Shown in pieces: positions 14,612-33,886 of a DNA stretch of 64,000 nucleotides. Every line of letters starts with the position of its first letter. The stretch's first letter is position 1. The stretch covers positions 2,914,001 through 2,978,000 of the forward strand of contig JAWPMV010000001.1 in assembly GCA_033391075.1 (NCBI GenBank), given 5' to 3'. Origin of the DNA: Bacteroidia bacterium (GTDB lineage: Bacteria > Bacteroidota > Bacteroidia > J057). The position numbers were made by a program, and so were the translations under genes. The notes below the pieces were generated by a model, which ran no database searches, was not told where the DNA came from, and saw nothing but the letters and a program-made list of their open reading frames with translations.

Positions 14612-14614
14612 TAT

Positions 14615-15043: not shown

Positions 15044-15045
15044 AT

Positions 15046-15297
15046 TTGGACTTACTCCCGTATATACAAAGGATTCCTGCTGGTTATTCAGAAGCATTTT
15101 ATAAAGGGAAAAAATATGGATTGAGTAAAGAAATATTCAACCAGGGCAAATCTTTTAAAATTTTTGCAGAAGAATTAGGAGGCAATGATTTCATCAGCTT
15201 CAACTATTACCTGAGCAGCAAAAAGGAATACTTAAAACCCTGTGAAATGCCTGCAGAGAAGGTTATAGCCTTCCTAAAAGAAGCAAAAGTTAAGTAA
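15046..15297 (+). CDS. Small conserved cytosolic protein with TTG start
   Basis: 83 residues with no signal or membrane segment. GYSEAFYKGKKYGLSKEIFN and the GGNDFISFNYY / KPCEMPAEKVIAFL segments recall a small Bacteroidota family sometimes labelled peptide methionine sulfoxide reductase, though it lacks the MsrA/MsrB catalytic motifs, so I do not adopt that name. The start is a TTG two bases after the upstream stop; no ATG is available in the N-terminal part. The tight spacing argues for translational coupling to the YeeE/YedE pair, and a single conserved Cys (in KPCEMP) could be redox- or sulfur-reactive. Confidence 0.7.
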   Translation: MDLLPYIQRIPAGYSEAFYKGKKYGLSKEIFNQGKSFKIFAEELGGNDFISFNYYLSSKKEYLKPCEMPAEKVIAFLKEAKVK

Positions 15298-15347
15298 ACG
15301 CACTTACATTCAACATAAAAATTTCATTCCATTAAATCCCCTTTTAT

Positions 15348-15381
15348 ATTGTAGCCTAAGCCCTTAATTAACTGCTACAAT
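15348..15381. promoter_or_regulatory. Inverted repeat overlapping the aldolase start codon
   Basis: ATTGTAGC (15348-15355) and GCTACAAT (15374-15381) are perfectly complementary, 18 nt apart; the right arm ends inside the ATG at 15380. It could be a repressor site or an RNA hairpin masking the start codon. Confidence 0.35.
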
Positions 15382-16150: not shown

Positions 16151-16171
16151 GTCTTAGCTGGGATTAACTCC

Positions 16172-18696: not shown

Positions 18697-18857
18697 TGCG
18701 TACTCTTTTACCGTCCTTTTAGCAAACCATTAACTATTCAGCATCAATCCTTTAGCCCTCATGATCAAGGAATTCCAAAAGTCCTTTTCTCTGCCAAGAC
18801 ATTCAAACTCTCAGTCAAATCCTTCGTTTCTTAGGGTGAATCAAAAATGAAAACCCT

Positions 18858-19136
18858 ATGAGTTCGAATGTAAAAAATCAACACACAGCAGCCTGGAGAT
18901 TTCAAGTCTGGGCCTCCTTTCTAATTTCAGGAGGACTTACCCTCGGAGGTATTTTCTATTTGCCGGTAGACTTTTGGATTAAAGGTTATCTCGCTATGGG
19001 AATTCTCTTTCTGATCGGTTCCTGTTTTTCTCTTGCGAAAACATTGCGAGATGATCATGAAGCCACAGACTTTGTCAATCGGGTTCAGAAAGCAAAGACG
19101 GAAAAGATATTGAGTGAGTTTGAGCCGGGAGGATAA
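18858..19136 (+). CDS. YiaA/YiaB two-helix membrane protein
   Basis: 92 residues with two hydrophobic segments (about 14-38 and 45-65) linked by a short turn (PVDFWIKGY), matching the YiaAB two-helix domain. Inner-membrane location; function unknown. A strong terminator follows at 19165, so it is probably a separate unit or the end of the metabolic run. Confidence 0.82.
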   Translation: MSSNVKNQHTAAWRFQVWASFLISGGLTLGGIFYLPVDFWIKGYLAMGILFLIGSCFSLAKTLRDDHEATDFVNRVQKAKTEKILSEFEPGG

Positions 19137-19164
19137 AAGATTGAAGTATTTAGCTGAATGGATG

Positions 19165-19196
19165 AGGCTTTCATGATAAAAATGAAAGCCTTTTTC
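19165..19196 (+). terminator. Rho-independent terminator after YiaAB gene
   Basis: Stem AGGCTTTCAT (19165-19174), loop GATAAAA, ATGAAAGCCT (19182-19191), then a T-run. It separates the YiaAB gene from the TRAP receptor gene. Confidence 0.85.
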
Positions 19197-19260
19197 CTTT
19201 GTCCAGTTTTTGTTGACTTTAAAAAGCCTGGTTTTTTTGAGGAATTTTTAAATTGGGTAT

Positions 19261-20262
19261 ATGCGAAAGCCCATCTCTACAATATCAAGCTGGATATTCC
19301 TTTTTCTGCTATTTTCCCTCCATATCCAATGCACGGAAAGAGCCGAGCCGGAGTATCTTTTTCGCGTCAGCCTCTGGGCGAATGAGCAGCATACCTGGGC
19401 AAAGGCTTTTCATCATTTTGCAGAAACCGTCCAGCAGGCTTCGGATGGTAGAATGAAAATAGAGATTTATTTATCCGAACAGCTAGCCAAAGAAAATGAA
19501 TCCATTCGCCTCATACAGGCAGACATCATTGATATGACCGTCACGGGTTCTGTCCTTAGCAATTGGATTGAAATTGCCACCTTTTGTGAATTGCCCTTTC
19601 TCCTAAAGGATTCCACCGAGATGAAAGAGCTGATTGAAGGCCCTATCGGAAAGCGCATTGAACAAGAAATTCTGGAGAAAACCGGCCTCAGGCCCTTGAC
19701 CTATTTTTCAAGAGGTCCCAGGCATTTGACCTCCAATCGTCCTATCAAACATCCGGATGACCTAAACGGTCTGATTCTTCGAGTTCCCAGTGTTCCTTCT
19801 TTTGTTACCGCCTGGAATGCGATCGGAGCGAAAGTCACTCCTATGGCTTTTTCGGAAGTCTTTACAGCCCTTCAACAAGGAACCATAGAAGCTCAGGAAA
19901 ATCCCTTTGACCTCATTCAGAATGGGAGCCTATATGAAGTTCAAAAGTATATCAATTTGACGGGACATGTGATTAGCTGGAGCTATCCGGTAGTGGGCGA
20001 AAAGCAGTTCCAAAGACTACCGCCAGATTTGCAGCAAATCTTCCTGGAAGCTGCTCAGGAAATGCATGATTACGAACATGCCCTATTCCTCGAAAATGAG
20101 AAAACGATTCAGGACAAACTCAAGGAAAGAGGCATGGAATTTATTGAAGTTGACAAAGCAGCTTTTCAGGCAAAATGTGAGAAGGTGATTTATGAAAGCC
20201 TTTCGGATGAGATGAAAGAAGTGTATCAGAGCTTGTTGGATGGAAGGGAGAAAGCTAAATGA
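19261..20262 (+). CDS. TRAP transporter solute-binding lipoprotein (DctP family), orphan
   Basis: 333 residues with a lipoprotein signal ending LHIQC (Cys near 24), then a DctP-type periplasmic-binding fold. Typical elements are LRVPSVPSFVTAWNAIGAKVTPMAFSEV (split by a short loop) near 175-205, which includes the carboxylate-binding Arg, and ALQQGTIEAQENPFDLI, the dimer/ligand-lid segment. TRAP systems import organic acids with DctQ/DctM membrane subunits; none is present in the window, so this receptor must act with a distant partner or another system. The gene sits after the aldolase/CoA-transferase run but behind a terminator. Confidence 0.9.
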   Translation: MRKPISTISSWIFLFLLFSLHIQCTERAEPEYLFRVSLWANEQHTWAKAFHHFAETVQQASDGRMKIEIYLSEQLAKENESIRLIQADIIDMTVTGSVLSNWIEIATFCELPFLLKDSTEMKELIEGPIGKRIEQEILEKTGLRPLTYFSRGPRHLTSNRPIKHPDDLNGLILRVPSVPSFVTAWNAIGAKVTPMAFSEVFTALQQGTIEAQENPFDLIQNGSLYEVQKYINLTGHVISWSYPVVGEKQFQRLPPDLQQIFLEAAQEMHDYEHALFLENEKTIQDKLKERGMEFIEVDKAAFQAKCEKVIYESLSDEMKEVYQSLLDGREKAK

Positions 20263-20337
20263 TTGGCTTTGCTTGACACAAAAAGCCCGGATAATTGCTG
20301 GGATATATTCAAAATCCAATATTATAGAAACACTTAC

Positions 20338-22449
20338 TTATAAATCCCTAATATATTGTTCTCCTTCTGAATCTGTGATTATTGCAAGAGCTGCTTTAGC
20401 TCTCGAAACACCAACATACAAATTTTCCTTTAGGTTGGCATGGCTGCCTTGATGAATCAATATTACCCCATCAGCCTCTAAACCTTTATACTGTGACACA
20501 TCATAAACCCTATATGTCTTGGAATTATTGGTAATTGGCGTATTGAAATTGATTACAGTTTCCGTATATAGTCCTTCTGCCCAATTTTCATCCTGAAAAA
20601 ACAAAACAATTTCAGAGCCCCACAAACCTAAATCCCGTCTCCGATATAACATTTTCATTTTCCCATTCATATTTTTCCAATAAATTCTATTGGCTCTTTC
20701 AGTAAATGAAATGGGAGCAGAATGATTATTTATATCTAAACCAATTGAATTCGCCAGTTCAATAACTGATTCAATGTCTTTATTTGATGGCAATTCATCA
20801 GAACTCAAACCTAAGTTTTCAAATTTATGCTTTATCCAATCGCTGTTATAGCCTTTCTTGATTAGTTTTCCATTATTTACAGCCTCAAGCAATCGAAGGT
20901 ATAATTCATCTTTCCAACCGCTTCCCTTAGGCTTTCTAATAAGAATTTGATTCAAGTCCCAGTCTTTTACCCTTAATGAACCCGAAAGGAGAATTGCTAT
21001 TTCATTTAGGCCTTCAAATTTTTCAATCCAGCGAACGGCATTTGGTAAAAGCTCGTTAAATACCCTTTCAATTTCTTTATAGGAATATAGTTTCACTTCC
21101 CCTAATCCTACAAGATCTTCAGAAGCCAGTGGTGCATTGAAGTGGAAGTTTTTCCTCATGAAATTAAAAATCTCGCCTCCATTTCTACAATTTCTTGACA
21201 AATCAATGACAGGTGATTCAATGGGATATTTACCTCTAAATGGCAAAAGTGCCTGGTTATCATCATGAAAAATGTAAAAGAAGCTGTTAGTAGAATTTTC
21301 TAATAACAATTCCAGAATCGTCCACCATTTTTCTCTAAAATCCTGTCCCTCATCGACAATTATTGCCCCATAAGTTTTCTGTCCATGATCAATTTTTTCA
21401 AATGCACTTTCTAATTCTGAATCAGTCGGTTCATATATATTGGTCCATTCCTTACCATAATCAATGGGCGGTTTCCCATTTAGCGAATTAATCCAATTCC
21501 CAAAAGAAAATACTTCCACACCAGAACCGGCAACTAGTCTCTCTAACTTATCAGCCAAATACGGATTATGGCAAAGGAGTAAAGTATCAATGCCTACATT
21601 TGATAATCGAATAGCTTTTTCGGCTGCTACAAGGGTTTTACCAGATCCAGCACAACCACTTATACGAACCCTTTTATTCACCCTTATCATCCTTAGCGTA
21701 CGATATTGATCGTCAGTAAGGTTTTTAACCTTTTGCCGTAATAAGGCCATGGTCGAGCTGATAGATTCTGTGAAATTGTTAGTCTTAATTGAATACCCAT
21801 CCCTAAGTTTCCAGGAAAGCATAGAATCGTCTGCTACGTAGAGACCCCATTCCAATTCATCTTCCAGCTTTTCTTCTTCCTCTCCAAAATACAAACTTCT
21901 AAATACTCGTTGATTTTCTGCTCCCGGTTCAATTACCGCTTTCGCTTTATTAAAGGCTTCTTCCAGTGTATCTCCGGCAACGAAGGAGCCATAAAAACTC
22001 TTAGAAAATTCAGCTGCTTTGTAATCATTTACTTCATGGCTAGTAGCTATGATAGCAGGAATGCCAGAATAAAGAAGAGATTCAACATGATCAAGGGTTT
22101 TACATGCATTTAAGAAAACCAATTGCAAATTTGGAGCGGCCTGCAAGAAGTCTTTTAAGGAGGTAGTATTGAATGCTATGTTTTTATTTTCTGCCGTCTG
22201 AAAATTGAGTTTATTACCATCATTGTGCCCTGAAAAATGAAAAACCAGTAACTGAGTCTTAAATTCATTCAAGTCTCGTAAAAGTTTATCGGGTTCAGTA
22301 GTTGCCGATGAATAAAAACTCCCCCATCCTTTCTTTTGATATCTTATCAAAATTGACTGAATGGCATCCTTTTCGGGAATTAGGGCATTGAGGAATACGC
22401 CTTCCTCATCATTAGCAAAAGTTAGAAATATTAAGGGTGCGTCTTTCAA
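20338..22449 (-). CDS. CHAT protease domain fused to SF1 (UvrD/Rep-like) helicase
   Basis: 703 residues. The N-terminal third (about 1-215) is a CHAT caspase-like domain with the catalytic pair in FHFSGH (His75) and VFLNAC (Cys116), clearly paralogous to the N-terminus of the WD40 protein upstream (LIFLTFAND versus VVFLTFAND; EEAFNKAKAVI versus ETAFNQAKTVI). A helicase core follows: Walker A GCAGSGKT (265-272), Walker B IIVDEGQD (363-370), motif IV-like LSRNCRN, motif V-like YKGLEADGVIL and motif VI LYVGVSRAKAAL. The start must be TTG at 22447-22449: a stop lies five codons upstream and no in-frame ATG occurs before residue ~233. The product could use nucleic-acid state to control proteolysis. 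It is 281 bp from the tRNA-fragment junction. Confidence 0.9.
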   Translation of the reverse strand: MKDAPLIFLTFANDEEGVFLNALIPEKDAIQSILIRYQKKGWGSFYSSATTEPDKLLRDLNEFKTQLLVFHFSGHNDGNKLNFQTAENKNIAFNTTSLKDFLQAAPNLQLVFLNACKTLDHVESLLYSGIPAIIATSHEVNDYKAAEFSKSFYGSFVAGDTLEEAFNKAKAVIEPGAENQRVFRSLYFGEEEEKLEDELEWGLYVADDSMLSWKLRDGYSIKTNNFTESISSTMALLRQKVKNLTDDQYRTLRMIRVNKRVRISGCAGSGKTLVAAEKAIRLSNVGIDTLLLCHNPYLADKLERLVAGSGVEVFSFGNWINSLNGKPPIDYGKEWTNIYEPTDSELESAFEKIDHGQKTYGAIIVDEGQDFREKWWTILELLLENSTNSFFYIFHDDNQALLPFRGKYPIESPVIDLSRNCRNGGEIFNFMRKNFHFNAPLASEDLVGLGEVKLYSYKEIERVFNELLPNAVRWIEKFEGLNEIAILLSGSLRVKDWDLNQILIRKPKGSGWKDELYLRLLEAVNNGKLIKKGYNSDWIKHKFENLGLSSDELPSNKDIESVIELANSIGLDINNHSAPISFTERANRIYWKNMNGKMKMLYRRRDLGLWGSEIVLFFQDENWAEGLYTETVINFNTPITNNSKTYRVYDVSQYKGLEADGVILIHQGSHANLKENLYVGVSRAKAALAIITDSEGEQYIRDL

Positions 22450-22681
22450 TTGGCAAGGGGGTTACAACAAATTGCTTAACCAGGAATTATTCGCAAACCT
22501 AAAGTATAAAACTTTCTGAAAGTTTCCTCTTTAAGCAAAAAGCATAGTTGCCTTTCATATCAGTATTTTAAAGTAAAAGTATGCTGGATAGAGTATACAC
22601 ATCCAGAGAAACTATATTCTGGAGAACAATAATTTTCTGGAAAACCAGAGAAAATAAAAGAGTATTTATTGTTTTTGGCAC

Positions 22682-22713
22682 AAAAAAAAACGCGACTTGC
22701 AAATAGTCGCGTT
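22682..22713 (-). terminator. Terminator hairpin beside displaced tRNA 3' end
   Basis: On the minus strand, stem AACGCGACT, loop ATTTGCA, AGTCGCGTT, followed by a run of eight or more T. It lies just past the tRNA 3'-end fragment at 22731-22752 and probably was the terminator of the original tRNA gene; today it could end the CHAT-WD40 transcript. Confidence 0.8.
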
Positions 22714-22730
22714 GTAATTTGATTTTCAGT

Positions 22731-22752
22731 GTGGGCCCACCCGAAATAGAAC
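22731..22752 (-). other. Displaced tRNA 3'-end fragment (candidate attachment site)
   Basis: The first 13 bases (GTGGGCCCACCCG) are identical to the 3' acceptor/T-arm end of the tRNA gene at 27850-27923, and 19 of 22 positions match overall. No other part of the tRNA is present. This is the pattern left when an element integrates at a tRNA 3' end and pushes the old end away. Confidence 0.6.
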
Positions 22753-22808
22753 ACTTTTTATAAGCTTTTGAAATACAGATACTTACAAGTGAATAATATC
22801 ATTTCGTG

Positions 22809-22826
22809 TTGCAGGCGTGCCTGCAA
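22809..22826. repeat. Perfect 8-bp-arm inverted repeat 3' of the WD40 gene
   Basis: TTGCAGGC, GT, GCCTGCAA. It lies within the 463-bp gene-free stretch 22450-22912, which otherwise holds the tRNA fragment and its terminator plus AT-rich sequence. There is no T-tract; it may be a weak terminator or protein site. Confidence 0.4.
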
Positions 22827-22912
22827 AGCAAAGAACGATCATGCATGTGTTATGCAGAGATTGATGATTCCAAATATTTAATAGTGCAAATAAATGCATC
22901 CAGGTTTCCTTT

Positions 22913-25900
22913 TTAGTAGCCTTTTCGATAGGCTTTAGGAATGCCATATTCCTCTTTTTCCTGATCCGAAAGAGGAGCTATGGGTACAGTTCTGAGGTAC
23001 TTAAATAATGCTTCAGGTGTCAGCCAAATTCTAATCTTCCCATCCTCTGACCAGCTGAGGATCTTATCTTCCCCCTGGCTAAAGACAGCGCCGTAGATAT
23101 AACTCTCATGCTCCATAGTGGCCAGCTCTTTGCCCGAGACATCCCAGAGCTTGACAGAGCCATTTTCTGACCAGCTGAGGATCTTATCTTCCCCCTGGCT
23201 AAAGACAGCCTCCCCTAGGACACTCCTCTCATGCTCCATAGTGGCCAGCTCTTTGCCCGAGACATCCCAGAGCTTGACAGAGCCATCCTCTGACCAGCTG
23301 AGGATCTTATCTTCCCCCTGGTTAAAGATAGCCCCTAGGACAATGCTCTCATGCTCCATAGCAGCCAGCTCTTTGCCCAAGACATCCCAGAGCTTAACAG
23401 AGCCATCAAATGACCAGCTGAGGATCTTATCTTCCCCCTGGCTAAAGACAGCGCCATCGACATAACTCTCATGCTCCATAGCAGCCAATTCTTTGCCCAA
23501 GACATCCCAGAGCTTAACAGAGCCATCCTCTGACCAGCTGAGGATCTTATCTTCCCCCTGGCTAAAGACCGCCCCTCGGACACTCCTCTCATGCTCCATA
23601 GCAGCCAGCTCTTTGCCCGAGACATCCCAGAGTTTGACTGAGCCATCAGAAGACCAGCTGAGGATCTTATCTTCCCCTTGGCTAAAGACCGCCCTAAGGA
23701 CAAGTCTCTCATGCTCCATTGCAGCCAGCTCTTTGCCCGAGACATCCCAGAGCTTGACAGAGCCATTTTCTGACCAGCTGAGGATCTTATCTTCCCCCTG
23801 GCTAAAGACAGCCCCTAGGACACTCCTCTCATGCTCCATAGCAGCCAGCTCTTTGCCCAAGACATCCCAGAGCTTGACAGAGCCATCAGATGACCAGCTG
23901 AGGATCTTATCTTCCCCCTGGCTAAAGACAGCCCCTTGGACACTGTTCTCATGCTCCATAGCAGCCAATTCTTTGCCCGAGACATCCCAGAGCTTGACAG
24001 AGCCATCAAATGACCAGCTGAGGATCTTATCTTCCCCCTGGCTAAAGACAGCCCCTAGGACATCACTCTCATGCTCCATAGCAGCCAGCTCTTTGCCCGA
24101 GACATCCCAGAGCTTGACAGAGCCCTTGCTTCCAAACCCCTTCCCAGACCAACTGAGGATCTTATCTTCCCCCTGGTTAAAGACAGCCCCTTGGACAATG
24201 TTCTCATGCTCCATAGTAGCCAGTTCTTTGCCCGAGACATCCCAGAGCTTGACAGAGCCATCAGATGACCAGCTGAGGATCTTATCTTCCCCCTGGCTAA
24301 AGACAGCGCCATCGACATAACTCTCATGCTCCATAGCAGCCAGCTCTTTGCCCAAGACATCCCAGAGCTTAACAGAGCCATCAATTGACCAGCTGAGGAT
24401 CTTATCTTCCCCCTGGCTAAAGACAGCCCCTAGGACACTCCTCTCATGCTCCATAGCAGCCAGCTCTTTGCCCGAGACATCCCAGAGCTTGACAGAGCCA
24501 TCAGATGACCAGCTGAGGATCTTATCTTCCCCCTGGCTGAAGACCGCCCCTTGGACAATGCTCTCATGCTCCATAGCGGCCAATTCTTTGCCCAAGACAT
24601 CCCAGAGCTTGACAGAGCCATCATATGACCAGCTGAGGATCTTATCTTCCCCCTGGCTAAAGACAGCCCCTAGGACACTCCTCTCATGCTCCATAGCAGC
24701 CAGCTCTTTGCCCGAGACATCCCAGAGCTTGACAGAGCCATCATATGACCAGCTGAGGATCTTATCTTCCCCCTGGCTAAAGACAGCCCCTAGGACACTG
24801 TTCTCATGCTCCATAGCAGCCAGCTCTTTGCCCAAGACATCCCAGAGCTTGACAGAGCCATCATCTGACCAGCTGAGGATCTTATCTTCTCCCTGGCTAA
24901 AGACAGCCCCTTGGACATCACTCTCATGCTCCATAGCAGCCAGCTCTTTGCCCGATACACCCCAGAGCTTGACAGTGCCATCATCTGACCAGCTGAGGAT
25001 CTTATCTTCCCCCTGGCTAAATACAGCCCCTTGGACATCACTCTCATGCTCCATAGCAGCCAGCTCTTTGCCCGAGACATCCCAGAGCTTGACAGTGCCA
25101 TCATCTGACCAGCTGAGGATCTTATCTTCCCCCTGGCTAAAGACAGCCCCTTGGACATAACTCTCATGCTCCATAGTAGCCAGCTCTTTGCCCGAGACAT
25201 CCCAGAGCTTGATAGAGCCCTTCTTACCTTCAAAACGATCCCTGGACCAGCTGAGGATCTTATCTTCCCCCTGGCTAAAGACCGCCCCTTGGACTCTACT
25301 CTCATGCTCCGTAGCAGCCAGCTCTTTGCCCGAGACATCCCAGAGCTTGACAGAGCCATCATATGACCAGCTCAGTACCTTATCTTCCCCCTGGCTGAAG
25401 ACCGCCCCTTGGACAGGCTCCGCATGAATAAAGTTTACCTCTGCAAACTTTTTCTTGTGCAAGAGCGGTTGATAATAGGCTGAAAACAGGTTTGTCACCA
25501 CTTTAGGATCAGGACTCAGACTATCAGCGGCGTAGGCCGCCTCAGCCAATCTTAAAGATCTGGTAGAGTTGATAGATCTCTGATCTTTTGAATTTGCCGC
25601 TAGAAGTGCCGAGGCTCCATCCTTCCCTCTCTCTATCCCATCTACTCCTAGAAAAGCGGCTACTCCTGAAATGGATAAAATGACAATAATAGCAGCAATG
25701 CCTAAACCCAGAATGATTCGATTTCGTTTTTTTCTTTTTTCTCGGGCTGTTTGGCTATCTGTAATTAAGCGCTCTTCCTCCTTCATCCATGCCCTCATGC
25801 CTGTTTTGCCTGCTTCTACGGTAGACAAATCTTCCTCATCCAGGATACCTGTTTCCTCAGTGGAATTGAGCATTTTACTTTCCAAAATCCTGTAGGCTCT

Positions 25901-27730
25901 TTGACCGGGTTTATCCGAATCTTTATGTTCTTTTTGGATGATGGGTGCAAGAGTGTCATGACTCAAGCTTCTACGGGACTTTACTTTATCGGTCAATAAG
26001 TAGAGGTTTTCCAATTCTTTCAGCAAAGCATCCATTTTATTTCCCAGATGAGGGTATGTCTCTTTGAGCTTATGGTCTTCATGGCTAGTCGCTGTTCCGA
26101 GTTTAGTTGTATAGGCATAGAGCACATCCAGAGCAAGGCCCGATTGTACAGCTTCTGGATTTTTGGTCTCGAGGGTTTCCATCTGTTGATGGAAGAAATC
26201 TTGCAGGAGATAGCCTTCTTTTTTTAAATCCTGGTATAAGGCGATTGAGAATTCTGCATTTTTTGCTTCCTTCCACATACGACTGAGCAATATCTGGAGG
26301 GCAGGAGCCAGCGCACTTTCTGCATCTTCCAGGAGATCATCTGCTATAATTCCGCCTAAGTCTCCCTCAGCAGTATCCAGAATTTGTAAGCCGTACTTTT
26401 CCTGAGTAAAGCTATTTTCCGTGATGCCTTCTATGGCCTCTACGATACCTGCCCGGGAAAGTCTTTTCAAGAATAGCTCGGTAAAAGTCAGATTGAACTC
26501 ATAGGCCAATTCCTCTATCTCGGGATGATATTCTTTTCTATAGGAAAGAATGATTTTCCCCTTAGGTTTTTCAGTCTCTCCATCGAAGCATTCAGCAAGG
26601 ATTCTGAAGAGTTCATTGAGTTCGGCCTGAGCTTTCGGAAGATTCTTTTTGGTAAAGGTCTCTTCCAATTGATCTAAAATTATGATCAAGGCTTTGCCCT
26701 GATCTTTTTCATGCTTGATCCAGGCATCATAAATTCCCTCTGCAGTTTCGAGTTTAAAAATAGCTTGTAAGGATTCTATAGCTCCCTCTTCAGCTCTTCT
26801 AACATACTGGAGTTGGTATTCTTCCTCCAGTCTGGGTAAAAGGCCTGCTTCCAGAAGCGAAGATTTTCCTACGCCCGTCTGTCCGTGAAAAAGAATGATG
26901 GGATGTTCACCTTCGATCTTTTGGTATAGCTCTGCGATTTCCTGCCCTCGGCCAAAGAAGATCCCTGCATGTTCTTTTTTAAAATGCCTGAGGTTGATGA
27001 AGGGTTCTTTGGGAAGTTTGAGATAATACTTTTGGGGAACATCTGGCAAATCGGCCAAAGGATCCTTACCCATAATTTTCCACCTCAAGACCTTTTCGTC
27101 TTGTATGTGTAAGCCCCAGGGAATCCCTTCCTTTTTTTTCCCTTTCTTAAGATAAGCCAGATCAATCTTCCTAAATACCTGGGATTTTGTATCCTTAGTA
27201 GAAATGACCGTCTTTGCCTGGTTGAAGGCCGTCTCCAGGGTATTGCCTGAAGCCAGGGAGCGATACAGCGCTATGGAAAACTGTTTAGCTTGTCTATCAG
27301 GAATAGCTTCATCCGTTAGGATAACTGCAGGAACTTTGATTGCTTTCAGTGCTTCCAAGATTCCATCGGAATTGCAAGCGTTCAGAAAGACCAATTTTAG
27401 TTTAGGTGCTGACTGGACTTCTTCTTTCAGAATCGAAATCAAATCATTCCCTTGTAACATCTCCTTATCACTGCCTTCTAATTGAAGGCTTTCTCCGTCT
27501 GAATGGCCCGAAAAATGGAAAATGGAGATTTGTCCTTTAAATGCATTGAGTCCTTCCATGATCTCATCGATGCCTGATCCGGCATTGTGGACGATACCTC
27601 CTTCTTTTTGAAAGCTGGCTAGTTTGGAATTGATGCCGTTTTGTTCGGGTTTGAGGGCTTCGAGGAAGGCTCCTTTGGAGTCATTGGCAAATGTGAGAAA
27701 AACAACTGGACTAGGCGTATTCTTAGGCAT
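22913..27730 (-). CDS. CHAT-nSTAND-TM-WD40 receptor-like protease
   Basis: 1605 residues. Domain order: CHAT caspase-like protease (about 1-215; His76 in FHFSGH, Cys119 in VFLNAC); nSTAND-type NTPase (about 255-620; Walker A GQTGVGKS 283-290, Walker B ALIIILDQLEE 347-357); a charged linker; one transmembrane helix (about 672-696); and a beta-propeller of 20 WD40 blades (about 765-1573) ending in a short charged tail. STAND proteins usually switch from closed to oligomeric on ligand binding by the repeat sensor; here the predicted output is CHAT proteolysis. Nineteen of the blades follow the same 40-residue unit, with variation focused on residues 4, 5, 7 and 23 of the unit. The gene fills a tRNA-bounded cassette. 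Immune or cell-death function is inferred, not shown. Confidence 0.92.
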   Translation of the reverse strand: MPKNTPSPVVFLTFANDSKGAFLEALKPEQNGINSKLASFQKEGGIVHNAGSGIDEIMEGLNAFKGQISIFHFSGHSDGESLQLEGSDKEMLQGNDLISILKEEVQSAPKLKLVFLNACNSDGILEALKAIKVPAVILTDEAIPDRQAKQFSIALYRSLASGNTLETAFNQAKTVISTKDTKSQVFRKIDLAYLKKGKKKEGIPWGLHIQDEKVLRWKIMGKDPLADLPDVPQKYYLKLPKEPFINLRHFKKEHAGIFFGRGQEIAELYQKIEGEHPIILFHGQTGVGKSSLLEAGLLPRLEEEYQLQYVRRAEEGAIESLQAIFKLETAEGIYDAWIKHEKDQGKALIIILDQLEETFTKKNLPKAQAELNELFRILAECFDGETEKPKGKIILSYRKEYHPEIEELAYEFNLTFTELFLKRLSRAGIVEAIEGITENSFTQEKYGLQILDTAEGDLGGIIADDLLEDAESALAPALQILLSRMWKEAKNAEFSIALYQDLKKEGYLLQDFFHQQMETLETKNPEAVQSGLALDVLYAYTTKLGTATSHEDHKLKETYPHLGNKMDALLKELENLYLLTDKVKSRRSLSHDTLAPIIQKEHKDSDKPGQRAYRILESKMLNSTEETGILDEEDLSTVEAGKTGMRAWMKEEERLITDSQTAREKRKKRNRIILGLGIAAIIVILSISGVAAFLGVDGIERGKDGASALLAANSKDQRSINSTRSLRLAEAAYAADSLSPDPKVVTNLFSAYYQPLLHKKKFAEVNFIHAEPVQGAVFSQGEDKVLSWSYDGSVKLWDVSGKELAATEHESRVQGAVFSQGEDKILSWSRDRFEGKKGSIKLWDVSGKELATMEHESYVQGAVFSQGEDKILSWSDDGTVKLWDVSGKELAAMEHESDVQGAVFSQGEDKILSWSDDGTVKLWGVSGKELAAMEHESDVQGAVFSQGEDKILSWSDDGSVKLWDVLGKELAAMEHENSVLGAVFSQGEDKILSWSYDGSVKLWDVSGKELAAMEHERSVLGAVFSQGEDKILSWSYDGSVKLWDVLGKELAAMEHESIVQGAVFSQGEDKILSWSSDGSVKLWDVSGKELAAMEHERSVLGAVFSQGEDKILSWSIDGSVKLWDVLGKELAAMEHESYVDGAVFSQGEDKILSWSSDGSVKLWDVSGKELATMEHENIVQGAVFNQGEDKILSWSGKGFGSKGSVKLWDVSGKELAAMEHESDVLGAVFSQGEDKILSWSFDGSVKLWDVSGKELAAMEHENSVQGAVFSQGEDKILSWSSDGSVKLWDVLGKELAAMEHERSVLGAVFSQGEDKILSWSENGSVKLWDVSGKELAAMEHERLVLRAVFSQGEDKILSWSSDGSVKLWDVSGKELAAMEHERSVRGAVFSQGEDKILSWSEDGSVKLWDVLGKELAAMEHESYVDGAVFSQGEDKILSWSFDGSVKLWDVLGKELAAMEHESIVLGAIFNQGEDKILSWSEDGSVKLWDVSGKELATMEHERSVLGEAVFSQGEDKILSWSENGSVKLWDVSGKELATMEHESYIYGAVFSQGEDKILSWSEDGKIRIWLTPEALFKYLRTVPIAPLSDQEKEEYGIPKAYRKGY
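23010..25438 (-). repeat. Array of 20 near-identical 120-bp WD40 repeats
   Basis: Unit in protein: EHExxVxGAVFSQGEDKILS then WSxDGSVKLWDVSGKELAAM, 40 residues or 120 bp. Variable sites are unit residues 4 (S/N/R), 5 (Y/D/S/I/L/R), 7 (Q/L/D/R/Y) and 23 (D/Y/S/I/F/E/G/R), with two-state S/L at 33 and A/T at 39. Two blades (the second and eleventh) carry a few extra residues before the GS-V/I-KLW strand. Long open frames on the opposite strand arise only from the repetition. Confidence 0.95.
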
Positions 27731-27800
27731 GGGCTTCTGTTATTTCATACTAAATAACAGAATAGCGAAATATTTTGATATACGGAAAACCGTAGGTGGG

Positions 27801-27841
27801 GAAAAGAAAAATCGGTTTATGCATAGTGCATAAACCGATTT
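27801..27841 (-). terminator. Terminator downstream of the CAT tRNA
   Basis: A 15-bp perfect stem (AAATCGGTTTATGCA / TGCATAAACCGATTT) with a 3-nt loop, followed on the minus strand by a T-rich run. It ends the tRNA transcript 8 bp after the tRNA 3' end. Confidence 0.85.
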
Positions 27842-27849
27842 GTAGAAGG

Positions 27850-27923
27850 TGGGCCCACCCGGACTCGAACCAGGGACCACCTGATTATGAGTCAGGTGCT
27901 CTAACCAACTGAGCTATAGGCCC
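27850..27923 (-). tRNA. tRNA with CAT anticodon (Ile2 or elongator Met)
   Basis: A full cloverleaf on the minus strand: acceptor stem GGGCCTA/TGGGCCC (one G-U pair), D-arm AGCTCAGTTGGTTAGAGC, anticodon stem CCTGA/TCAGG around loop CTCATAA, T-arm with GGTTCGAGTCC, discriminator A. The 3' CCA is not encoded. CAT can be elongator Met or, if C34 is modified to lysidine by TilS, Ile for AUA codons; the sequence alone does not decide. Its 3' end is the target of the putative insertion at 22731-27861. Confidence 0.95.
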
Positions 27924-28415: not shown

Positions 28416-28796
28416 TTAAGGATTCGGAATAATCAATTCCTGTCCTGGATGAATCAAGTTAGGATCTTTCAGGATATGCGTATTCGCCTGGAAGATGTCA
28501 TTGTATTTCATCGGATCACCGTAGATGGCTTTGGCAATTTTGCTCAAAGAATCACCACCTTTAACGGTATACTTTCCGTAGATCTCTGTGTTTTCTACTG
28601 CGATGTCAGCTTCAAGATCAGCAGGAGCGTCTCCTCCGATTTTCTTGATCTTATCCCAAAGCGCATCCTTATCCATTTGTGTAGCAGCTGTACCTTTGAT
28701 CTTCAGTTTTCCATCAACCTCTTGTACATCACCGTCTTTAACACCAAGCTCTTCGCCTAGTTTGAGTACATCATTGTATTTAGCCTGTAAGCTCAT
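28416..28796 (-). CDS. BON-LysM domain protein (YgaU/Kbp-like)
   Basis: The chosen start at 28796 gives 126 residues beginning MSLQAKYND, preceded by AGAAAG 6 bp upstream; a longer start at 28826 would add ten unrelated residues. A BON-like domain (about 1-70, DGKLKIKGTAATQMDKDALW) is followed by a LysM motif (about 78-126, YTVKGGDSLSKIAKAIYGD ... IHPGQELIIP). The E. coli relative Kbp binds potassium and is cytoplasmic or periplasm-linked; no signal peptide is present here, so cytoplasmic is likely. A strong terminator follows. Confidence 0.9.
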   Translation of the reverse strand: MSLQAKYNDVLKLGEELGVKDGDVQEVDGKLKIKGTAATQMDKDALWDKIKKIGGDAPADLEADIAVENTEIYGKYTVKGGDSLSKIAKAIYGDPMKYNDIFQANTHILKDPNLIHPGQELIIPNP

Positions 28797-28920
28797 AATT
28801 CTTTCTAAAATTTGTGTGTTAAACAATATCGTCTTCGGCTCAAGATATAATTAAAGTGCCAAAAATCACAATTATGATGGACAAGAAGCCCCAAGGTCAC
28901 AGGGAAATGAAAATTCCTTG

Positions 28921-30225
28921 CTATTCCGTCCCTAAAGGCGCTTCTGCAGATGTCTTATCTACCAACAATTTCAAGCCTGCATCCTCCTGAATTGCATCCA
29001 GCCTGGCCAGCATTTTATCTCTATATGCCATAAAAGCCGTGCAGTATTCATCTTTGACCGGATTGGAGGAAGGAGGATCTACTTTGAGCGGGTCAACCGG
29101 AACGCCATTCTTGTAAAAACGAAAATCCAGGTGAGGCCCTGTTGAAAGACCCGTACTTCCTACATAGCCAATGATTTGTCCCTGCTCTACTTTAGTTCCA
29201 GCGCGTATATCTTTTCCGTAGCGGTACAAATGTAAATATGCAGTTGTGTAATTGCTGTTGTGGCGGATCTTAACCATTTTTCCAGCACCTCCACTATACG
29301 CGGCTTTTAATACCACTCCACTTCCCACTGCCAGGACAGGTGTTCCTCTGGGTGCCGCATAATCTACCCCATGATGAGGGCGGCGAATTTTCAATACAGG
29401 ATGCAGCCTGCTATGTGAAAAACGGGAGCTAATTCGGGAAAACTGTAAAGGAGCCTTCAAGAAGGTCTTTCTCAAGCTATTTCCGTACAAATCAAAATAT
29501 TCTCTGCCATCCCCCTGATTATAGGCGAAAGCATGTCGGTTTTTTCCTAAATGATAAAAAGAAGCCGCTTTGATCTCACCAAATCCTGCCTGCTGGCCAT
29601 CTACTTCATAGGTAGTATATAATACCTTAAAGCAATCTCCGGCCTGTAAACCAAAGAAGTCAATCTCCCAGGCATATACATCAGCCAGTTTACTTACCAA
29701 AGCAGGAGTTCCTCCAGCTTCTAAAATCGCATTATACAGAGAACTACTGATCGTCCCACTCAGGCTCCTCTCCAGGGTATCCACAGGCCTTTGCCCATGT
29801 GAAATAGAAAGGGAATCAGAGAATTCCAATACCGTATAATCTATGGCATTGGGTTCATACACAAAACAGAGGGGAGTTTTGCTGGTATCCTTAGGTCTGA
29901 TGACTGTATAAGGCTTATTGGCTTGCAGCCGCCTCACATCAAAATCCTCTCGGGGAACCTGGCCAATGGCGGCTATATAAGAATGAGGAACATTAAAACG
30001 GTTAAGCACTTCTCCCAAACTTTCATTCTTGACAAATTTTGCCCGAATGACCTCCATGGAATCAATTGTATATCCAAAGAGTGTTTTTGAAGAATGATTT
30101 GTAATTTTGTCCTCGGTTAAAGTAGAAGATGCAGCATGTTGGGGGGAATCCATCTTGCATGAATAAATCAGCAAGCATGCTAATAGCAAGACGGAAGAAC
30201 GAAAGAGCAGAAGGCGGTGTCGCAT
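28921..30225 (-). CDS. M23 family lipoprotein metallopeptidase
   Basis: 434 residues. The signal ends IYSC (Cys23), so it is a lipoprotein. An OapA/LysM-like N-terminal region leads to an M23/LytM peptidase domain (about 265-390). Zinc ligands HHGVDYAAP (His, Asp near 288-292) are present, but the third ligand motif reads HLD (GPHLDFRFYKNG), not the usual HLH, so metal binding may be altered or use Asp. The family cleaves peptidoglycan cross-links during cell-wall remodelling; degenerate members can activate amidases. It is divergent from trhO by 90 bp. Confidence 0.9.
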   Translation of the reverse strand: MRHRLLLFRSSVLLLACLLIYSCKMDSPQHAASSTLTEDKITNHSSKTLFGYTIDSMEVIRAKFVKNESLGEVLNRFNVPHSYIAAIGQVPREDFDVRRLQANKPYTVIRPKDTSKTPLCFVYEPNAIDYTVLEFSDSLSISHGQRPVDTLERSLSGTISSSLYNAILEAGGTPALVSKLADVYAWEIDFFGLQAGDCFKVLYTTYEVDGQQAGFGEIKAASFYHLGKNRHAFAYNQGDGREYFDLYGNSLRKTFLKAPLQFSRISSRFSHSRLHPVLKIRRPHHGVDYAAPRGTPVLAVGSGVVLKAAYSGGAGKMVKIRHNSNYTTAYLHLYRYGKDIRAGTKVEQGQIIGYVGSTGLSTGPHLDFRFYKNGVPVDPLKVDPPSSNPVKDEYCTAFMAYRDKMLARLDAIQEDAGLKLLVDKTSAEAPLGTE

Positions 30226-30315
30226 TACTTTAGATAACTATGTTCAGATATTATGAACGTAGCGCGAAGATAGTAATTTCATTTTTCGAAAAAAACAGAT
30301 TTACAGAAAGCAGGA

Positions 30316-31329
30316 ATGGCACTATATAATAAAAGGAACGGAGAGGAATTGAAAGCAGAAATGCTCAATAGTACCGAAGAAAGGACAACCTTATCCTTTT
30401 ATAGATACCGCAAGATTGAAGATCCTCATAAATTTAGAGATGATCTGTTTAAGGTATGGGATGAATTAGGAGTTAAAGGCCGTGTTTATGTAGCCTATGA
30501 AGGAATCAATGCTCAGATTAGCTTGCCTTCTGAAAATTTCGAAGCTTTCAAGACACATTTATACGGGATACAGGGTTTTGAAGGCTTAAGACTAAATATT
30601 GCGGTTGAGGACGATGGCAAATCTTTCTTTAAGCTAAAGATCAAAGTACGACCCAAAATCGTAGCGGATGGCCTGGATGACAGTAGTTTCGATGCAGGCA
30701 ATGGAGGGAAACACCTCAATGCAGAAGAATTCAATCAGCTGACCAGCCAGGATGATACGGTGATTGTAGATATGAGAAATCACTATGAATCGGAGGTTGG
30801 GCATTTTAAAGGAGCCATTTTGCCGGATGTAGATACTTTCAGAGATTCTTTACCCATCGTAGAGGATATCCTGGATGAGCATAGAGAAAAGCATATCGTC
30901 ATGTATTGCACAGGCGGGATACGATGCGAGAAAGCCAGTGCGTATTTTAAGCATAAAGGCTTCGAAAAAGTTTACCAACTGGACGGAGGCATTATCAAAT
31001 ATGCCCATGATGTAAAGGAGAAAGGCCTGGAAAATAAATTCCGCGGAAAGAATTTCGTATTTGATGAGCGTTTGGGCGAAAGAATCTCCGATGAGGTCAT
31101 TGCCAGTTGTCATCAATGCGGCAAACCTTGTGACAGCCATGTCAATTGCAAGAACGTGACTTGCAACTTACTCTTTATCCAATGCGAGGAATGCGCCAGG
31201 GAAAATGAAGGCTGCTGTTCAGATGAATGCCAGGAGTTCATCCACCTTCCGGCAGAAGAGCAGATTCAAGCCCGAAAAGGTAAGGATTCGGGAATCCGAA
31301 TTTTCTCTAAAGGAAGAATGAAGTCCTGA
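30316..31329 (+). CDS. trhO: tRNA uridine(34) hydroxylase TrhO (rhodanese-related)
   Basis: 337 residues. An N-terminal acylphosphatase-like domain (about 20-115) and a rhodanese domain (about 135-235) with the active-site loop MYCTGGIRCEKASAYF (catalytic Cys near 199), then a cysteine-rich C-terminal zinc-like region (SCHQCGKPCDSHVNC, ECARENEGCCSDEC). This is the TrhO/YceA layout: oxygen-dependent hydroxylation of U34 in tRNA. A ribosome site (AGCAGGA) precedes the ATG. It converges with the C25 protease gene with almost no gap. Confidence 0.93.
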   Translation: MALYNKRNGEELKAEMLNSTEERTTLSFYRYRKIEDPHKFRDDLFKVWDELGVKGRVYVAYEGINAQISLPSENFEAFKTHLYGIQGFEGLRLNIAVEDDGKSFFKLKIKVRPKIVADGLDDSSFDAGNGGKHLNAEEFNQLTSQDDTVIVDMRNHYESEVGHFKGAILPDVDTFRDSLPIVEDILDEHREKHIVMYCTGGIRCEKASAYFKHKGFEKVYQLDGGIIKYAHDVKEKGLENKFRGKNFVFDERLGERISDEVIASCHQCGKPCDSHVNCKNVTCNLLFIQCEECARENEGCCSDECQEFIHLPAEEQIQARKGKDSGIRIFSKGRMKS

Positions 31330-31330: not shown

Positions 31331-33886
31331 TTAGTTTCTAATCATCAGCTTTTGGCTTAGGCTTTTTCCCTCAATTTGAAACTGAATAAAGTAGATCCCC
31401 TCTACAAGCTTTTTATCCCGCAGATCAAAAGTAATAGTATGTGGTCCGGGAGCATTTTTTCCTTGAGAAAGGAATAAAGCTCTGCCCTGCATATCCAGCA
31501 ATCGAATCTGTACATCTGCATATTCTTCCAACTCATAATTAAGGCTAAGTTGATCCTTTGCCGGATTTGGAAAAAGCTTGAGTCCAAGTGCTGCCAATTC
31601 CTCATCTACTGAAGTATTGTTTCCTGAAGCCGGAATCCAAAGCAAACTGGGGTCTCCCTGAAGATTGAACTGCAGGGCATGATTGACATATTGAATTCCA
31701 CGGAGAGAATCCATGGAAGTTTTGATCGCTGTATTGATAGCCGTTCCCAATCTTGTATGATTGGCAGCATAAAGCTCCCGATACAAAAACTTGCCTAAAT
31801 CTCTTAAAGGATTCAGATAAGCACTGGCTGAGGTACCTAAATAAGCAATTGCCCCTCGATTGGGTTCAACCATCCACCTTTCTCCAAAACTCCAGTCTCT
31901 GCTAAAATCGGCGCCATTACATCCCATCGCTATCATAACAGGATATCGACCATAGTTTTGATAGTCTGTTGCTTCGCCGATTTCAATGTCCTGGATATTA
32001 GCCGTTGAATGTCCGAAGAAATGAATCAGGCCCACGCCATTATCGATTTCATCATAACAAAGTTGATTGGGATCTGCACTGCTATCAATCAGGCAGAAAT
32101 TATTGCTGCGCAAAGCATTTCCGCTGTCAAAGATATTTCTGAAATTTTCTAAAGAAGCACGAATAGCTGATTGTTCTCCCGCACTTGCTCCTCCTCCCAG
32201 AAAAACTGCCTTATGAATCCATGAACTATCAGCCGCCTGCTCGTATTCAATTACCTTATTCAGGTAGTTCATCCCGTCCTGATTGTTACGAATATTGACC
32301 CTGCCGATAGGAATTTGAGGAATGACAGAATCCCTGTCCGGAGCCTCCAGTTTACTCACAAAAATGTAATCACTGACCGGATTCCCATAAGAAGGAAGTA
32401 AATTTTCTGCCTGGTCTCTAATCTCATTTTTAGCATTTCCCCACAGCAATATATACTCAGGAGCCAATTGCCAATTATCTAAGGCATAATTGCAAAACCT
32501 CTGAATTGCCAGAGGACTTGGAGTACCATACCCAAACTCATCATAAATATTATCTACATAAACAATTTGAGTGGACAAGGAATTGATCGGATTGTTTTCC
32601 CGATAACTTTGATAGGATTCGGCTGATTGCTGGAGATCTCTATGAGTAATGATGACTAATTCTTCTCCCTGGGAGACATCGGATAGATTCTGAAATTGAG
32701 CTACAGAAATTGTAGCTGTATTGATTGATCTATCACTCGCTATATATAAATCTCTTTTCTCCGGAAAGCCTTTAACAATCACCTGCCCGGTATCCTGAGA
32801 AATAAGGCCTACATTCCGAATACCAGTTGACAGATCATATACAAATACGGTATCCCTGCCATCCAAGTCTTCGAATTGAAAATAGGCATCTGCATTCTTT
32901 TCCCAGGCAGAAATCTTCATATGAGACGCTCCCGCAAGATTCGGCAATCTGTTATAAGTCAAAGATGCTCTTGACAAATGATTTAGGTCTCCCGAAAAAA
33001 GCAGTGCTCTTAATTCCAGCTTCGTTTGAGGACCTATGAGTGTAGAAGCTGAGAGTTTTCGACTATATGATTTTTGATAAATGGAGGAAATATTGATCGT
33101 TGTATCCAAAAAGGGATTAGCAGTATCTCCGTTTATAGCAGCATTTACATGGTGCCGGGTTCGGGATCCCCCAAAAATCCGAAAATCAACTGCTACTGCA
33201 GGCGTATCGCTTCGGGCAGAAGGTGTATCGAAATTTAGAGATAATGGAGTCCCGGTTCCATATGCGGGTCCTAGATATCCTTCCCCTATCCCATATAAAG
33301 GGTTCAAGGTATAAAATGGCTCATAGGGCCCTCCTCCTCCTAATACTAAGCTCGTTTCAGATTTAGCAGGATCGAAAAGAATGAGCGACTCATACCTGAA
33401 ATGTGGTTCTGCAATAAAGGCGCCATAGGCATCATTGAAATAGGTCTGATATCTAGAAGAGGAAGCTTGCTGATCCCAAGTCAGATAAAATACGGAGCTA
33501 TCTGAAAAGAGGCTGAATTCCGGATGCGGCTGAAGGCCAGGATCTTTCCTTCCCTGCGAAGCATCCCGGTATAAACCTGCATCATCTTTTCCATCGAGGC
33601 GATCTGCAAAAAATTCTACTCCTTGTACTTCTCCATTGCTATTTTGATAAAGGAATATTTTCTGTTCCTCTCCTCTGAAATATAAATGGAAATTATCTGC
33701 GGGAATACTGCTTATATCAATACCGACAGCTTGAAACTCCTCCATATCTATGCGATAAATCCCTCTTTCTGCAGTTTCAATTTTGATATAGGTTTGATTC
33801 GGATTGATCCAGTCGTTGCCGTAATTCTGGGAAATTAGATTGTAAGAATACAGACAAAAAATGAGGGATAGGATCGTGTATTTCAT
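31331..33886 (-). CDS. C25 (gingipain-like) cysteine protease with T9SS sorting domain
   Basis: 851 residues. Signal peptide (MKYTILSLIFCLYSYNLIS), a beta-rich N-terminal region, then the caspase-like C25 catalytic domain with His in GLIHFFGHST and Cys in MIAMGCNGADF, about residues 415-740. The last 75 residues are a type A T9SS sorting domain (LFPNPAKDQLSLNYELEE ... GIYFIQF), so it is exported through the type IX system and attached or released at the surface. Secreted protein digestion is the likely role. Full-length relative to C25 proteins of this type. Confidence 0.92.
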   Translation of the reverse strand: MKYTILSLIFCLYSYNLISQNYGNDWINPNQTYIKIETAERGIYRIDMEEFQAVGIDISSIPADNFHLYFRGEEQKIFLYQNSNGEVQGVEFFADRLDGKDDAGLYRDASQGRKDPGLQPHPEFSLFSDSSVFYLTWDQQASSSRYQTYFNDAYGAFIAEPHFRYESLILFDPAKSETSLVLGGGGPYEPFYTLNPLYGIGEGYLGPAYGTGTPLSLNFDTPSARSDTPAVAVDFRIFGGSRTRHHVNAAINGDTANPFLDTTINISSIYQKSYSRKLSASTLIGPQTKLELRALLFSGDLNHLSRASLTYNRLPNLAGASHMKISAWEKNADAYFQFEDLDGRDTVFVYDLSTGIRNVGLISQDTGQVIVKGFPEKRDLYIASDRSINTATISVAQFQNLSDVSQGEELVIITHRDLQQSAESYQSYRENNPINSLSTQIVYVDNIYDEFGYGTPSPLAIQRFCNYALDNWQLAPEYILLWGNAKNEIRDQAENLLPSYGNPVSDYIFVSKLEAPDRDSVIPQIPIGRVNIRNNQDGMNYLNKVIEYEQAADSSWIHKAVFLGGGASAGEQSAIRASLENFRNIFDSGNALRSNNFCLIDSSADPNQLCYDEIDNGVGLIHFFGHSTANIQDIEIGEATDYQNYGRYPVMIAMGCNGADFSRDWSFGERWMVEPNRGAIAYLGTSASAYLNPLRDLGKFLYRELYAANHTRLGTAINTAIKTSMDSLRGIQYVNHALQFNLQGDPSLLWIPASGNNTSVDEELAALGLKLFPNPAKDQLSLNYELEEYADVQIRLLDMQGRALFLSQGKNAPGPHTITFDLRDKKLVEGIYFIQFQIEGKSLSQKLMIRN

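What the first reader, a model, noticed from the sequence alone, without database searches (positions are those of the whole stretch)
22913..27730. CHAT-nSTAND-TM protease receptor with a 20-blade, near-clonal WD40 sensor
Seen: a caspase-like CHAT domain with His76/Cys119, an nSTAND NTPase with Walker A and B, one membrane helix, and 20 WD40 blades of 40 residues. Almost all variation is at unit residues 4, 5, 7 and 23. Known: WDSP work places interaction hot spots of WD40 proteins on the top face at positions R1-2, R1 and D-1; these correspond well to unit residues 5, 7 and 23. Known: fungal NWD (HET-E-like) proteins show concerted evolution of blades with hypervariable top-face residues. Inferred: this gene is a self-diversifying immune or conflict receptor whose ligand-triggered output is CHAT proteolysis.
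Basis: partly seen in the sequence, partly recalled or inferred. Interest (0 to 1): 0.85.

Follow-up and report, generated by a model that had tools for sequence, protein, structure and literature searches.

The report
Membrane protease receptor with hypervariable propeller
A large environmental bacterium carries a probably membrane-spanning, caspase-like protease receptor whose 20 nearly identical sensor blades differ mainly at four exposed residues, sites that also diversify in fungal self/non-self receptors, so it looks like a bacterial recognition receptor built to change specificity.

Summary
The ORF at 27730-22913 (-), 1605 aa, encodes a CHAT protease domain (His76/Cys119), an nSTAND1 NTPase, one membrane helix and 20 WD40 blades. 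Minimum events at these codons are 20 replacement and 3 silent, against 10 and 17 at the other 36 (Fisher p = 4e-4). Bottom-face loops are nearly invariant. All four residues fall in the set used for Podospora HET-D/E repeats. A good model supports the CHAT and STAND folds; the catalytic pair is kept in 75 of the 75 relatives that cover it. The genome has no reverse-transcriptase match, which argues against a diversity-generating retroelement. Highly repetitive WD40 receptors with variable hotspots are already described in bacteria and fungi, so this is a variant, not a new kind. Strain-level blade turnover, ligand and proteolysis remain untested. A 7-blade register in the array is only suggestive.

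The parts
22913..27730 (-). whole gene, 1605 aa CHAT-nSTAND1-TM-WD40(20) receptor, ATG start
27071..27712 (-). CHAT caspase-like protease domain, residues about 7-220
   Evidence: CHAT profile 34.5 bits over cut-off 24; AlphaFold2 model with a 50-row alignment, mean pLDDT 89.0; SAVED-CHAT 8tl0 Z 25.0, rmsd 2.3, 198 aligned
27503..27505 (-). His76 codon, presumed catalytic His
   Evidence: invariant in A2, 50 rows; aligns to the His of the 8tl0 GH motif
27374..27376 (-). Cys119 codon, presumed catalytic Cys
   Evidence: invariant in A2; aligns to the first Cys of the 8tl0 NACC motif
25949..27004 (-). nSTAND1 NTPase, residues 243-594
   Evidence: Pfam PF20703 E 1.3e-29; structural matches to ORC/Cdc6, plant NLR NB-ARC and other AAA+ NTPases
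26858..26884 (-). Walker A, residues 283-291 (GQTGVGKSS)
   Evidence: sequence; G283, G288, K289, S290, S291 invariant in A2
26660..26689 (-). Walker B, residues 348-357 (LIIILDQLEE)
   Evidence: sequence; D353 and E356 invariant in A2
25661..25717 (-). membrane helix, residues 672-690; seven K/R in the 15 residues before it and two in the 15 after
   Evidence: hydropathy scan
23021..25423 (-). 20 WD40 blades, residues about 770-1570, unit of 40 residues (120 bases)
22916..23020 (-). C-terminal tail after blade 20, residues 1571-1605
22689..22713 (-). terminator-like hairpin after the gene and before the next CHAT gene, so the two may not share a transcript
   Evidence: 5 terminator-like sites found in the stretch, 6.4 expected in shuffles, so weak

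Best explanation
This is a single-span inner-membrane STAND receptor. Shown by sequence and model: an N-terminal CHAT cysteine-protease fold with an intact His/Cys pair, an nSTAND1 switch with intact Walker motifs, one hydrophobic helix, and a C-terminal 20-blade WD40 array. Shown by statistics within the gene: the blade framework is held nearly uniform (purifying selection, with a pattern that fits exchange of tracts between blades), while codons 2, 3, 5 and 21 carry an excess of replacements. Inferred: CHAT and STAND lie in the cytoplasm and the propellers in the periplasm; the propellers' top faces bind a variable, probably non-self or rival-derived, ligand; binding lets the NTPase oligomerise and brings CHAT domains together, which activates them to cut one or more cytoplasmic substrates, most likely stopping growth or killing the cell. 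New specificities arise by point mutation in many equivalent blades followed by reshuffling, not by a retroelement.
For: Folds: the CHAT part matches SAVED-CHAT 8tl0 (Z 25.0, rmsd 2.3, 198 aligned), caspase-8 and caspase-11 at Z 15.0 and 14.4; the STAND part matches ORC/Cdc6 (16.6), NRC1/NRC2 (15.4) and 8bob of the maltose system (14.1) (model). The pair is in register with 8tl0, invariant in 50 rows and kept in 75 of 75 loci that cover it. Selection: minimum events at the four codons 20 replacement and 3 silent, elsewhere 10 and 17, Fisher p 0.00044; pN/pS 1.84 against 0.19; mean residue difference 0.502 in top-face loop columns, 0.047 in bottom-face ones. Exchange: 40 of 105 pairs of informative sites show all four combinations. 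Columns 21, 1, 5, 3 and 2 have the highest mean entropy rank in the 14 next most repetitive arrays of this receptor family. Topology: of 64 proteins with a mid-protein helix (one contig counted twice), 62 have more K/R before it than after and 2 are equal; among 15 relatives scanned, L126 carries CHASE2 and L133 a beta-lactamase-family domain after the helix, and a split version carries OmpA (L083). No RVT_1 match in the genome.
Against: No strain comparison was possible, so turnover of blades is inferred from one allele. The event counts come from one gene with probable recombination, so the p value is approximate, and four-combination pairs can also come from recurrent mutation. Top-face loops are among the most variable parts of other WD40 arrays too, so part of the pattern is generic; ranks in single arrays are mixed (in L161 column 23 leads and column 2 is 19th). 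Bottom-face column 31 does vary (Ser/Leu). The WD40 model failed (mean pLDDT 38.2), so face assignment rests on register with published propellers. 24 of 88 examined proteins show no helix in the window scanned (some are cut by contig ends), so the family is not all membrane-spanning; the charge rule was applied with a simple hydropathy scan. Of 15 relatives scanned only two carry a domain that I call typically extracytoplasmic; others carry FGE-sulfatase, Lcl_C, TPR or WD40, which do not decide the side, or nothing recognised. His conservation is biased by the search pattern. The 10 neighbouring genes tested by Pfam are not recognisable defence genes; the CHAT-helicase gene next door is a separate case.
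Confidence: 0.5

Rival explanations
1. Same receptor but wholly cytoplasmic, like fungal HET-E or bacterial Avs proteins; the helix only anchors it to the membrane and the propellers sense an intracellular target such as a phage protein.
For: Characterised STAND sensors bind phage proteins and fungal NLRs are described as intracellular (passages). 24 of 88 proteins show no helix in the window scanned.
Against: 62 of 64 helix-bearing proteins obey the positive-inside rule for an outside C-terminus, 2 are equal. CHASE2 and beta-lactamase-family domains (2 of 15 relatives scanned) and OmpA in one split version occupy the sensor place.
Confidence: 0.25
2. A recently amplified propeller whose exposed loops drift freely; the variable residues have no recognition role.
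For: New propellers are amplified from single blades continuously, including in a bacterial STAND protein (PMC9218822, passages). Silent differences are modest.
Against: Bottom-face loops are nearly invariant (0.047 against 0.502). Replacements per site at the four codons exceed silent changes per site over the unit 2.6-fold; drift predicts about 1 or less.
Confidence: 0.15
3. The blades are targets of a diversity-generating retroelement, because variable codons 3 and 21 are mostly NNT.
For: 17 of 18 internal blades have T at the third base of codon 3 and 12 of 18 at codon 21. Such elements diversify STAND-linked sensors in other multicellular bacteria (PMC10907252, passages).
Against: 0 RVT_1 matches in the 9.49 Mb genome, 99.2% complete. 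A 601-base blade query finds DNA matches only inside this gene, so no separate template repeat is seen.
Confidence: 0.02
4. A housekeeping membrane sensor-protease (for example of envelope stress or cell contact in a multicellular lifestyle) whose propellers bind several different partners, one per blade face.
For: The scaffold carries several alternative C-terminal domains. The genome holds 36 CHAT matches.
Against: A conserved sensor should not show replacement excess at the presumed contact positions. The gene is absent from the conserved neighbourhood in three genomes of the same family.
Confidence: 0.15

Closest known systems
Podospora anserina HNWD receptors HET-D/HET-E/HET-R
   Same: STAND NTPase with a C-terminal array of nearly identical WD40 blades; concerted evolution; positive selection at codons 7, 9, 25 and 27 of the repeat (PMC1805685, passages), and positions 10, 11, 12, 14, 30, 32, 39 used in a later numbering (PMC12222747, passages). 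By the shared spacing of 18 I map these to unit residues 3, 5, 21, 23, and 1, 2, 3, 5, 21, 23, 30 here; all four variable columns fall in the second set, three in the first.
   Different: HET effector and NACHT in place of CHAT and nSTAND1; fungal; residue 23, variable there, is invariant Gly here; a membrane helix separates switch and sensor here; 20 blades instead of 10-12.
Bacterial Highly-Repetitive WD40 proteins and WRAP-type STAND proteins (for example Npun_R6612)
   Same: Near-identical WD40 blades; WRAP is fused to a STAND ATPase and suspected in innate immunity (PMC9218822, passages); hotspot sites in highly repetitive WD40s noted as diverse (PMC5587647, passages).
   Different: The WRAP domain has no silent differences, here pS is 0.137; the passages read describe no CHAT domain on it; no per-codon test of the hotspots in the passages that I read.
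SAVED-CHAT (8tl0), caspases
   Same: CHAT fold, and His and Cys in register with 8tl0.
   Different: SAVED-CHAT carries a SAVED sensor rather than a STAND domain (its place in a cyclic-nucleotide cascade is recalled, not looked up).
Prokaryotic metacaspase-NACHT-WD40 and metacaspase-TM-CHASE2 proteins
   Same: Caspase-like protease, NTPase and WD40 in one protein; a membrane-spanning protease with an external CHASE2 receptor was proposed (PMC3501461, passages).
   Different: Peptidase C14 and NACHT rather than CHAT and nSTAND1; the WD40 version is not described as membrane-spanning in the passages that I read.

Membership tests
CHAT protease | CHAT profile over its cut-off | tested here: met
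   34.5 bits, cut-off 24, own-genome search
CHAT protease | catalytic His and Cys | tested here: met
   H76 and C119, invariant in 50 rows, kept in 75 of 75 covering loci, in register with 8tl0
CHAT protease | proteolytic activity | not testable with these tools
   needs purified protein
nSTAND1 STAND NTPase | nSTAND1 profile and Walker A/B | tested here: met
   PF20703 104.5 bits, cut-off 27.1; invariant G283, GKSS 288-291, D353, E356
Highly-Repetitive WD40 (internal identity at least 0.7) | high identity between contiguous blades | tested here: met
   median pairwise identity 0.85 over 20 blades; my measure, not the published pipeline
HNWD-like diversifying receptor | replacement excess at particular codons of the repeat | tested here: met
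   approximate statistics on one allele
HNWD-like diversifying receptor | HET effector plus NACHT | tested here: not met
   CHAT and nSTAND1 instead; it may work like one but is not a member
HNWD-like diversifying receptor | repeat-number polymorphism between strains | not testable with these tools
   only one genome of the genus is held
HNWD-like diversifying receptor | exchange of blades between paralogous genes | tested here: not met
   a 601-base blade query matched only inside this gene in its genome
Diversity-generating retroelement target | reverse transcriptase in the genome | tested here: not met
   0 RVT_1 matches
Outward-facing single-span receptor | positive-inside charge and extracytoplasmic sensor | tested here: inconclusive
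   7 K/R before, 2 after; 62 of 64 agree, 2 equal; extracytoplasmic-type domains in 2 of 15 relatives scanned and one split version; no experiment
Known anti-phage system in PADLOC | match to a named system | tested here: not met
   2 families hit: HEAT-ARM_XIII, E 3.1e-29, over the WD40 blades, probably repeat-driven, and weak SAVED_CHAT, E 0.0019

The most novel reading that the evidence does not exclude
A bacterial, outward-facing counterpart of the fungal HET-E type receptor: hypervariable periplasmic propellers that read rival, kin or phage molecules and pass the signal through the membrane to a caspase-like protease, with specificity renewed by blade shuffling. Each 7-blade block may be a propeller copy that keeps its own set of contact residues while the framework is homogenised across all 20 blades.
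Probability: 0.25. Interest if true: 0.82.

Novelty: new variant of a known kind. Interest (0 to 1): 0.6.

Why it matters
It offers one bacterial gene in which framework homogenisation and focused diversification can be seen codon by codon, at positions that also diversify in fungal self/non-self receptors. If the topology holds, it is a membrane-spanning, caspase-like receptor with an evolvable external sensor, which would make the question of how multicellular bacteria recognise rivals, kin or phages before entry directly testable. The CHAT-nSTAND scaffold is widespread: 79 loci, the best of at least 202, in records named for Bacteroidota, Planctomycetes, Calditrichia, KSB1, Caldilineaceae, Anaerolineae, Acidobacteriota and others.

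Tried and rejected
Retroelement diversification: rejected for lack of a reverse transcriptase match and of blade DNA outside the gene.

Recent amplification with neutral drift: disfavoured.

Seven-blade register: blades seven apart are more alike in codons 1-22 (6.54 differences against 8.57 on average; single-lag p 0.0014; 0.015 over all lags), and in residues 2-3 of blades 3-19 (single 0.0019, all lags 0.012). Against it: residues 2-3 over blades 1-20 or 2-20 give 0.10 and 0.13 over all lags; all four residues give 0.35, 0.48 and 0.12 (blades 1-20, 2-20, 3-19); residues 5 and 21 show no lag-7 signal; the framework shows none (p 0.33); and I noticed the lag by eye first. Kept as suggestive only.

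WD40 model: AlphaFold2 without alignment gave mean pLDDT 38.2; not used. The number and grouping of propellers is therefore unknown.

Blade array in other genomes: the 280-residue blade query at E 1e-45 hit only the own genome among 395 genomes of the phylum; an exact 29-base blade pattern hit 0 viral contigs. Plasmids: 26 records with weak matches to residues 1-700, none covering 80%.

Operon with the neighbouring CHAT-helicase gene: a terminator-like hairpin lies between (not above chance number), and the helicase part had no match in loci L071 and higher except stretches of the own locus.

Genomic island at the tRNA-Met: one search searched two stretches each within itself and could not answer this; one search found no exact match of 14 or more bases of the tRNA in window 10000-27847 or beyond 27923. 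The block 28416-31329 is shared with three family members that lack this gene there, so insertion or loss is possible but not shown.

Full report
WHAT IS THERE. The finding's coordinates are exact. The minus-strand ORF 22913..27730 encodes 1605 residues. A CHAT domain lies at the N-terminus (profile 34.5 bits, cut-off 24), nSTAND1 at 243-594, one hydrophobic helix at 672-690, and 20 WD40 blades from 770 on. The DNA shows the same array with a 120-base period.

THE BLADES. In my register the unit is ESxVxGAVFSQGEDKILSWSxDGSVKLWDVSGKELAAMEH. Columns 3, 21, 5 and 2 have the highest entropy. Twenty blades show 18 different four-residue combinations at these columns. Among the 18 internal blades the four codons have pN 0.488 and pS 0.265, the other 36 codons pN 0.027 and pS 0.137. 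Counted as minimum events, the four codons need 20 replacement and 3 silent changes, the rest 10 and 17, Fisher p 0.00044; replacements per site at the four codons are 2.6 times silent changes per site over the whole unit. A within-gene control: mean pairwise residue difference is 0.502 in top-face loop columns (1, 2, 3, 5, 21, 23) and 0.047 in bottom-face loop columns (11-15, 30-34), where column 31 is the one that varies. The faces are assigned from the published WD40 register, not from a model of this protein. Of 105 pairs of informative sites 40 show all four combinations, as expected if tracts are exchanged between blades, though recurrent mutation can also do this.

COMPARISON WITHIN THE FAMILY. 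Among 84 proteins (the focal one, 79 named loci, and 4 from genomes of the own family), 35 had six or more recognisable blades. The focal protein has by far the most uniform array: median blade identity 0.85, the next 0.55, 0.50, 0.47 and 0.47. In the 14 next most repetitive arrays, columns 21, 1, 5, 3 and 2 have the highest mean entropy rank (0.88 to 0.80); single arrays are mixed. So the sites of variation are largely shared by the family, while the sharp contrast with an invariant framework is particular to this gene. Part of the shared pattern will be general to WD40 blades.

FOLD AND ACTIVE SITE. A model of residues 1-700 with a 50-row alignment has mean pLDDT 89.0. Its CHAT part matches the SAVED-CHAT filament 8tl0 with Z 25.0, rmsd 2.3 over 198 residues, and caspases at Z 14-15. 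Its STAND part matches ORC/Cdc6, plant NLR NB-ARC domains and 8bob (maltose system; MalT, recalled) at Z 14-17, with many other AAA+ NTPases close behind. The profile alignment to 8tl0 puts His76 and Cys119 on the His of its GH motif and the first Cys of its NACC motif. Both residues are invariant in the 50 rows and kept in 75 of the 75 loci that cover them; 4 of the 79 loci do not cover both. The His count is biased, because one of the two search patterns contains it.

TOPOLOGY. Seven K/R precede and two follow the helix. Of 88 proteins scanned, 64 have a helix in the middle, and 62 of these have more K/R before than after, 2 equal; 24 have none in the window scanned. Fifteen relatives, picked mostly for tails without recognised WD40 arrays, were scanned with Pfam: after the helix stand CHASE2 (L126), a beta-lactamase-family domain (L133), Lcl_C (L093, L130), FGE-sulfatase (L121), weak TPR (L107) or WD40-type matches (L095, L101, L120, L136); L096, L104, L116, L144 and L156 show nothing recognised there. 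In the own genome the same parts occur as separate neighbouring genes: CHAT, nSTAND1, and a third protein with a helix followed by WD40 (L079, where the order differs, L081, and weakly L082) or OmpA (L083). CHASE2 and OmpA domains are extracytoplasmic by established knowledge. I therefore place the sensor outside, as inference. A metacaspase with an external CHASE2 receptor was proposed in the same sense in 2012 (PMC3501461, passages).

MECHANISM. Shown: intact protease and NTPase motifs, hydrophobic helix, focused replacement excess, no reverse transcriptase match in the genome, blade DNA confined to this gene. Inferred: exchange between blades, outward sensor, variable non-self ligand, NTP-driven assembly, CHAT activation by proximity, and cell arrest or death. 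The gene lies alone between a tRNA-Met (27848-27923) with a hairpin behind it (27809-27841) and a terminator-like hairpin at 22713-22689 (sites not above the chance number), which fits a stand-alone receptor.

WHAT IS KNOWN. HET-D/E repeats: codons 7, 9, 25 and 27 under positive selection (PMC1805685, passages); seven positions in a later numbering (PMC12222747, passages). The common spacing of 18 puts these on unit residues 3, 5, 21, 23 and 1, 2, 3, 5, 21, 23, 30 here; residue 23 does not vary in this gene. Highly repetitive WD40 proteins are known in bacteria, with diverse hotspot sites (PMC5587647, passages). A STAND protein with a freshly amplified WD40 propeller is known from a cyanobacterium (PMC9218822, passages). 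Retroelement-diversified STAND and CHAT proteins are known from multicellular bacteria (PMC10907252, passages). nSTAND1 was named in PMC8195603 (passages). My searches did not show a paper on a CHAT-nSTAND-TM protein with a hypervariable WD40 array; they cover only the held open library, and only listings and passages were seen.

LIMITS. One allele, one genome of the genus. The WD40 model failed.

VERDICT. A real and well-described feature, partly as interpreted. It is a new variant of known highly repetitive STAND-WD40 receptors, of interest for its clean codon-level signature and its probable outward orientation.

Noticed in passing
20338-22449 (-): Neighbouring gene with a CHAT domain (33.8 bits; 40% identical to the focal CHAT) fused to a UvrD-like SF1 helicase resembling NERD-helicase parts of defence models.
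   Followed up: partly
own genome, G000 (9.49 Mb): 36 CHAT matches in one genome, all over the curated cut-off.
   Followed up: partly
L079, L081, L082, L083: Multi-gene versions of the same receptor: separate CHAT, nSTAND1 and membrane-helix sensor genes, the sensor being WD40 (weak in L082) or, in L083, OmpA; L079 also has Peptidase_C14 and an amidase gene next to it.
   Followed up: partly
L076 5005-7893 (contig C2, 176 kb): CHAT 52% identical to the focal one, followed by what reads by eye as an NB-ARC-like NTPase and TPRs; two Haliscomenobacter plasmids match the CHAT part at 29-30% identity under genes annotated as tetratricopeptide repeat proteins.
   Followed up: no
L126, L133, L093, L130, L121: The CHAT-nSTAND scaffold carries CHASE2, beta-lactamase, Lcl_C or FGE-sulfatase in the sensor place.
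   Followed up: partly
blades 2 and 11 (residues about 830-839 and 1196-1204): Two blades nine apart carry similar Lys/Gly/Phe-rich insertions in the b-c hairpin on the presumed binding face.
   Followed up: no
31331-33886 (-): Gingipain-type Peptidase_C25 with a type IX secretion sorting tail.
   Followed up: no
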